DNA of 64,000 nt from Acidimicrobiia bacterium (GTDB lineage: Bacteria; Actinomycetota; Acidimicrobiia; Acidimicrobiales; Poriferisodalaceae), in contig JAJEBN010000109.1 of the NCBI GenBank assembly GCA_022822525.1, forward strand, positions 1 to 64,000, read 5' to 3'. Below are positions 42,687 through 43,175 of the stretch, in pieces (within the stretch, counting starts at the first letter, position 1; each line of letters opens with the position of its first letter). The position numbers and the translations under genes were made by a program. Under the pieces are notes generated by a model, which searched no databases, was not told where the DNA came from, and worked only from the letters and a program-made list of their open reading frames with translations.

Positions 42687-43175
42687 TCAGCCCTGGCGTT
42701 GCCTCATCTGCTGCACGAAACGGATGATGCGCATGGTGTCGAGTGCGGTGAACCGTCCGATCGGCCCCGTCGAATAGCACGCTTGAGCCACCTTGCCGCC
42801 CGGGGACAGGATGAAGCCGGTGGCATGCAGGATGCCCCGCCCCTCCTCGGTGTAGGCCCCGGTCAGCGACGACACCTCGGCCATGTCGGCGCTGTGCAGC
42901 ATCTTCACCGAGCGCAGCTGCAGGCCATCGGAGAGGCGCTGGGTGGTGTCCTTGTCGTCCACCGAGAGCGCCACGACGCCGGCGTCGAGCGTCTTGAGCA
43001 GCGAGCCGGCACCGTCGAAGTCAACCAACTGTTGACGGCAGTACGGTCACCAGTGGCCCCGGTACACCAGCACCACTCCCCAGCCGTCGCCGAAGACTTC
43101 GGGGATCGTGACCTGCCCATCGTCGAGGTCGCTCAGCGTGAGCTCGGGGAACGCGTCTCCGCTGTCGAGTTTCAT
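42687..43175 (-). CDS. Peroxiredoxin-like (AhpC/TSA-type) protein, putative selenoprotein with in-frame TGA at 43047-43049
   Basis: Same-frame ORFs on both sides of one TGA: MKLDSGDAFPELTLSDLDDGQVTIPEVFGDGWGVVLVYRGHW-[TGA]-PYCRQQLVDFDGAGSLLKTLDAGVVALSVDDKDTTQRLSDGLQL...; the TGA replaces Cys of the W-C-P-Y-C-R peroxiredoxin-like motif. Confidence 0.85.
43020..43036 (-). promoter_or_regulatory. Candidate bacterial SECIS hairpin for the peroxiredoxin-like selenoprotein
   Basis: Minus strand GTCAAC-AGTTG-GTTGAC: perfect 6-bp stem, loop starting 16 nt after the TGA with G at loop position 2. Confidence 0.65.

What the first reader, a model, noticed from the sequence alone, without database searches (positions are those of the whole stretch)
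42687..43175. Second candidate selenoprotein: peroxiredoxin-like RGHW-U-P-Y-C-R-Q-Q-L with a SECIS-like hairpin
Two ORFs in the same frame are separated only by a TGA (43047-43049). Read through, they give VVLVYRGHW-U-PYCRQQLVDF, matching the W-C-P-Y-C-R motif of AhpC/TSA-like peroxiredoxins with Sec replacing the peroxidatic-position Cys. The TGA is followed after 16 nt by GUCAAC-AGUUG-GUUGAC, a perfect 6-bp stem with a short G/U-containing loop. Sec-containing peroxiredoxins and thioredoxin-fold proteins are established bacterial selenoprotein classes. Finding two independent cases in 64 kb makes coincidental nonsense mutations unlikely.
Basis: partly seen in the sequence, partly recalled or inferred. 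Interest (0 to 1): 0.85.

Follow-up and report, generated by a model that had tools for sequence, protein, structure and literature searches.

The report
Selenocysteine-containing peroxiredoxin-like redox protein
A small bacterial redox protein here uses selenium: an in-frame stop codon in its gene is almost certainly read as the amino acid selenocysteine, directed by an RNA hairpin just after it that has been preserved across many related species; it is a well-supported but essentially known kind of protein.

Summary
On the minus strand, 43175-42687 is one 162-residue gene (AhpC/TSA-type peroxiredoxin fold) interrupted only by TGA at 43049-43047, giving YRGHW-U-PYCRQQL. It is a selenoprotein gene, not a pseudogene. 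The same genome has selA, selB, selD and a tRNA-Sec with a TCA anticodon. TGA sits at this position in 24 of 30 genomes of the order with a homologue, all 24 of which have selA, and in 29 loci compared. Cys codons replace it elsewhere. The Sec rows form one clade. The hairpin (10-nt spacer, 6-bp stem, AGUUG loop starting 16 nt after UGA) is under strong synonymous constraint. A distant TGA-containing paralogue in the same genome has the same geometry and loop on a differently sequenced stem. One correction: Sec43 is not at the peroxidatic position. Cys46 aligns with the peroxidatic Cys and Sec43 with the preceding Thr/Ser; the canonical Pro and Arg are also missing. It therefore fits the known class 'Prx-like thiol:disulfide oxidoreductase, UxxC', not Sec-peroxiredoxin (TxxU). 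The novelty is a new, order-wide lineage of a known kind. The first candidate in the window (TGA at 599) is also of a known kind (WAxxUGC).

The parts
42687..43175 (-). Gene of a 162-residue peroxiredoxin-like selenoprotein (ATG 43175-43173, stop TGA 42689-42687)
   Evidence: Read-through translation; Pfam AhpC-TSA 55 bits, Redoxin 40 bits; conserved over its length in 29 loci with TGA; AlphaFold2 mean pLDDT 93
43047..43049 (-). In-frame UGA read as selenocysteine (Sec43 of WUPYC)
   Evidence: TGA in 29/29 loci of the Sec clade, TGC/TGT in Cys relatives
43038..43040 (-). Codon of Cys46, partner of Sec43 in the UxxC motif; aligned with the peroxidatic Cys of true peroxiredoxins
   Evidence: Invariant in all 39 sequences of A1; alignment to PDB peroxiredoxins
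43020..43036 (-). SECIS-like hairpin GUCAAC-AGUUG-GUUGAC, apical loop 43030-43026 starting 16 nt after UGA
   Evidence: Fold -6.9 kcal/mol, same in nearly all relatives; synonymous constraint; compensatory pairs; same geometry and loop in a paralogue

Best explanation
This is a functional selenoprotein gene of an Acidimicrobiia-type actinobacterium. SelB carrying Sec-tRNA(Sec) binds the hairpin just downstream of UGA 43049-43047 and inserts selenocysteine there, giving a peroxiredoxin-fold protein (no signal peptide apparent from the sequence) with a thioredoxin-like W-U-P-Y-C redox centre. The likely chemistry, which is inferred, is that the Sec43 selenolate attacks a disulfide or peroxide, forms a selenenylsulfide with Cys46, and is reduced again by the thioredoxin system. 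The recoding part is supported by several independent lines here; the substrate and reductant are inferred from the motif and fold.
For: Recoding machinery in the same genome: selB 274 bits over cut-off, tRNA-Sec 67 bits with anticodon TCA, selA 389 bits next to selB, selD 355 bits, itself with an in-frame TGA in SHGAGUACK. TGA at the Sec position in 24 genomes of the order and 29 loci, at identities down to about 40%; Cys codons in the others. All 24 have selA against 191 of 299 overall, Fisher p = 1.2e-5, not corrected for relatedness. Sec rows form one clade, support 96/90. Upstream of TGA, dN is 0.04-0.14 against dS 0.18-0.54, so the N-terminal part is selected as protein; the hairpin codons show no change in the genus. 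Codons CGT 29/29, CAA 24/24, TTG 27/29 and GTT 27/29 against 11-24% in the rest of the gene. Hairpin geometry and loop shared with a TGA-containing paralogue, with four pairs changed on both sides in the pooled set. Prx fold, Foldseek E about 1e-11. UxxC with neither the PxxxTxxC motif nor its Arg.
Against: No protein-level evidence of Sec. Covariation within the orthologues alone is weak: one compensatory change, 45 of 500 shuffles as high. In the RHQ variants the fifth pair breaks, and the predicted stem has to re-pair with a bulge. The redox partner and substrate are unknown; the gene stands alone between unrelated neighbours that are not conserved beyond close relatives.
Confidence: 0.93

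Rival explanations
1. Sec is incorporated, but the protein is mainly a peroxidase, a peroxiredoxin variant in which Cys46 or Sec43 reduces H2O2 or organic peroxides and the other residue resolves it. (This is a rival to the chemistry, not to the recoding.)
For: Peroxiredoxin fold and AhpC/TSA match; Cys46 aligns with the peroxidatic Cys and is invariant in A1. In three relatives the first position is Trp while Cys46 remains, though those letters may be TGA read with code 4.
Against: The peroxiredoxin signature PxxxT/SxxC is not met (Arg39 and Sec43 in place of Pro and Thr), and the catalytic Arg aligns with Ala117. Conservation of Sec rather than Thr at 43 argues for chemistry at 43.
Confidence: 0.35
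2. A nonsense mutation or decaying pseudogene, or two separate short proteins, the C-terminal one starting at the TTG 43028.
For: Public gene calls list only 92-113 residue C-terminal pieces for close relatives; no experimental Sec evidence.
Against: TGA held in 29 loci down to 40% identity with no other stops or frameshifts, purifying selection on both halves, Sec machinery present, RNA-level constraint. Splitting would remove the redox motif.
Confidence: 0.02
3. UGA is read as another amino acid (Trp or Cys) by a code change or suppressor.
For: Relatives have Cys, a few are recorded with Trp, at this position.
Against: UGA serves as the ordinary stop of this same gene; tRNA-Sec, SelA, SelB and SelD are present; the hairpin is conserved only with TGA.
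Confidence: 0.02

Closest known systems
Prx-like thiol:disulfide oxidoreductase selenoproteins (PF00578, UxxC/UxxU; 'Prx-like' of the Sargasso Sea and GOS surveys)
   Same: AhpC/TSA domain, UxxC centre, Cys homologues, SECIS immediately after UGA (PMC1088965, PMC2398784, PMC13188914)
   Different: This lineage has a WUPYCRQQLVDF centre and was found here across an actinobacterial order; no NCBIfam selenoprotein model reaches its cut-off.
Sec-containing peroxiredoxins (TxxU)
   Same: Peroxiredoxin fold, Sec in the active site region
   Different: Sec is at the Thr/Ser position, Cys at the peroxidatic position; Pro and Arg of the peroxiredoxin site are missing.
SelL / SelL-related redox proteins (NF040769)
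   Same: Weak HMM match, 19 bits against a cut-off of 120; Prx-like Trx fold
   Different: Far below cut-off; UxxC here, whereas SelL is UxxU (from general knowledge).

Membership tests
Bacterial selenoproteins | In-frame UGA at a redox Cys position, conserved, with Cys homologues | tested here: met
   29 TGA loci, TGC/TGT in relatives
Bacterial selenoproteins | SECIS hairpin just downstream of UGA with G in a small apical loop | tested here: met
   Loop AGUUG 16 nt after UGA; synonymous constraint and compensatory pairs with the paralogue
Bacterial selenoproteins | selA, selB, selD and tRNA-Sec in the genome | tested here: met
Bacterial selenoproteins | Selenium in the isolated protein | not testable with these tools
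   Needs 75Se labelling or mass spectrometry
Prx-like thiol:disulfide oxidoreductase (PF00578, UxxC) | PF00578 domain with UxxC in place of TxxU | tested here: met
   55 bits against cut-off 26; U43-P-Y-C46
Prx-like thiol:disulfide oxidoreductase (PF00578, UxxC) | Same clade as the published representatives | not tested
   Representative sequences (e.g. WP_010940744.1) could not be fetched
Sec-containing peroxiredoxin | PxxxT/SxxU or C with catalytic Arg, Sec at the peroxidatic position | tested here: not met
   Arg39 and Sec43 replace Pro and Thr, Cys46 at the peroxidatic position, Arg replaced by Ala117
SelL-related | NF040769 above cut-off | tested here: not met
   19 of 120 bits

The most novel reading that the evidence does not exclude
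A distinct, vertically kept UxxC Prx-like selenoprotein clade of this actinobacterial order in which the SECIS RNA has frozen the protein sequence: RQQLVDF is nearly invariant in Sec forms although the proteins are otherwise about 40% identical, and free to vary in Cys forms. It would be part of an unusually selenium-heavy set of thioredoxin-fold proteins, 5 of the 11 AhpC/TSA matches in this genome carrying an in-frame TGA.
Probability: 0.5. Interest if true: 0.45.

Novelty: new member of a known kind. Interest (0 to 1): 0.35.

Why it matters
Standard gene calling cuts this gene at UGA: database entries for close relatives are C-terminal fragments of 92-113 residues lacking the active site, so the protein has been missed. 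It adds a well-supported selenoprotein lineage to a class of bacteria in which I found no selenoproteome paper. It also gives a clean case of one loop and spacing on two different stems, useful for defining the SECIS recognised by actinobacterial SelB.

Tried and rejected
Pseudogene or nonsense mutation: rejected on conservation and selection. Code change: rejected, as UGA is an ordinary stop. Covariation from orthologues alone: too little variation to decide, so synonymous constraint and the paralogue were used. Gene neighbourhood as a clue to the partner: no neighbour conserved beyond close relatives. Literature searches gave no paper on selenoproteomes of Acidimicrobiia.

Full report
Observation. 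The finding lies on the minus strand. From ATG 43175 the frame runs to TGA 42689-42687 with a single interruption, TGA at 43049-43047. Read through, it gives a 162-residue protein with VVLVYRGHW-U-PYCRQQLVDF. Both sides have coding-like third-position GC (0.83 and 0.92). The hairpin GUCAAC-AGUUG-GUUGAC is exact at 43036-43020.

Machinery. The window lies in a 3.55 Mb assembly, 98% complete. It has selB (274 bits, over cut-off) and selA (389 bits), adjacent on contig C37. A tRNA-Sec lies on the same contig (67 bits; ARAGORN tRNA-SeC, anticodon TCA). selD is on C73 (355 bits) and itself reads SHGAGUACK through an in-frame TGA.

Conservation. Of 299 genomes of the order, 30 have a homologue at E 1e-8. 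At the codon of residue 43, 24 have TGA and 6 have TGC/TGT (in G115 the TGA counted is the ordinary stop). With loci from named MAGs of Acidimicrobiia, 29 non-duplicate loci carry TGA; three Chloroflexota (Ktedonobacter, Dictyobacter) carry TGT. All 24 TGA genomes have selA against 191 of 299 overall (Fisher p 1.2e-5, not corrected for relatedness). Two of the six Cys genomes (G082, G262) are not among the selA-positive genomes listed. In a maximum-likelihood tree the 22 Sec rows are one side of a branch (96/90), so Sec is an old, kept state here and not a string of chance stops. Between relatives the part upstream of TGA has dN 0.04-0.14 against dS 0.18-0.54.

RNA element. In the 29 loci the codons over the hairpin are CGT 29/29, CAA 24/24 of Gln rows, CAG 29/29, TTG 27/29, GTT 27/29 and GAC 29/29, although CGT, CAA, TTG and GTT make up only 11-24% of their families in the rest of the same genes. 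Cys relatives use other codons and other residues there. Within the orthologues there is too little variation for a strong covariation test: one pair changed on both sides (L029), 45 of 500 shuffles as high. A more telling comparison is a distant TGA-containing paralogue in the same genome (C60:11259-11486, FYRGLW-U-PPCRREL). It is also TGA-bearing in the four same-genus genomes. Its hairpin has the same 10-nt spacer, 6-bp stem and AGUUG loop but a different stem (GCCGCG/CGCGGC). Counting seven representative sequences gives four of six pairs with changes on both sides, 2 of 500 shuffles as high on the covariation score, and no slid register close. The seven were picked by hand and include near relatives, so this is an illustration more than a formal test. 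The two genes share an encoded motif, so their hairpins may be homologous; the compensatory changes still argue that the pairing is selected.

Protein. Pfam AhpC-TSA and Redoxin match above cut-off. The AlphaFold2 model has mean pLDDT 93 and matches peroxiredoxins (Foldseek E about 1e-11, TM 0.72-0.86). In alignments to solved peroxiredoxins Cys46 falls on the peroxidatic Cys and Sec43 on the Thr/Ser three residues before; Arg39 takes the place of the motif's Pro, and the active-site Arg aligns with Ala117. Invariant residues across 39 homologues are R39, G40, W42, C46, L50, S71, D73, G140 and R141. The arrangement W-U-P-Y-C resembles the thioredoxin/TlpA centre on a peroxiredoxin scaffold. 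The mechanism I think most likely is a Sec43 nucleophile, a Sec-Cys46 selenenylsulfide and reduction by thioredoxin. This is inferred; a peroxidase role is the main rival and was not tested.

Comparison. Published surveys separate Sec-peroxiredoxin (TxxU) from 'Prx-like thiol:disulfide oxidoreductase' (PF00578, UxxC) (PMC1088965; PMC2398784; PMC9312934; PMC13188914). By domain and motif this gene falls in the second. I could not place it phylogenetically against the published representatives. NCBIfam has no model that fits above cut-off. Public databases hold close relatives only as UGA-truncated pieces.

Verdict. A real selenoprotein gene, correctly spotted, with one interpretive slip (position of Sec). 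A new member of a known kind.

Noticed in passing
It matches NF041054 (ResA-like WAxxUGC motif protein, 148 bits, under the 300-bit cut-off), a known selenoprotein kind.
   Followed up: partly
L063 (G000:C9:45700-46500) and L064 (G000:C9:111200-112100): Two further AhpC/TSA-like genes in the same genome with in-frame TGA in WFWAPW-U-PxCxREAPAV; likely thioredoxin-like selenoproteins.
   Followed up: partly
L065-L070: Paralogue FYRGLW-U-PPCRREL conserved with TGA in five genomes of the genus; its hairpin shares loop AGUUG and 16-nt spacing with the finding.
   Followed up: yes
L018 1501-2454 (G000:C73:37177-38130): SelD is itself a selenoprotein here (SHGAG-U-ACK).
   Followed up: partly
P0023, P0030, P0031: Relatives recorded with Trp at the Sec position (WWPFC), from contigs of 668-1196 bases; may be TGA translated with code 4, that is, Sec forms in other lineages. 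P0035 and P0036 likewise look cut just after a UGA. In the tree the Trp rows were labelled Cys.
   Followed up: no
window 43342-44475 and 44515-45648 (+): Two tandem related genes; the first matches the ERG4/ERG24 sterol reductase family (124 bits), which I recall as uncommon in bacteria; conserved next to the selenoprotein gene in close relatives.
   Followed up: no
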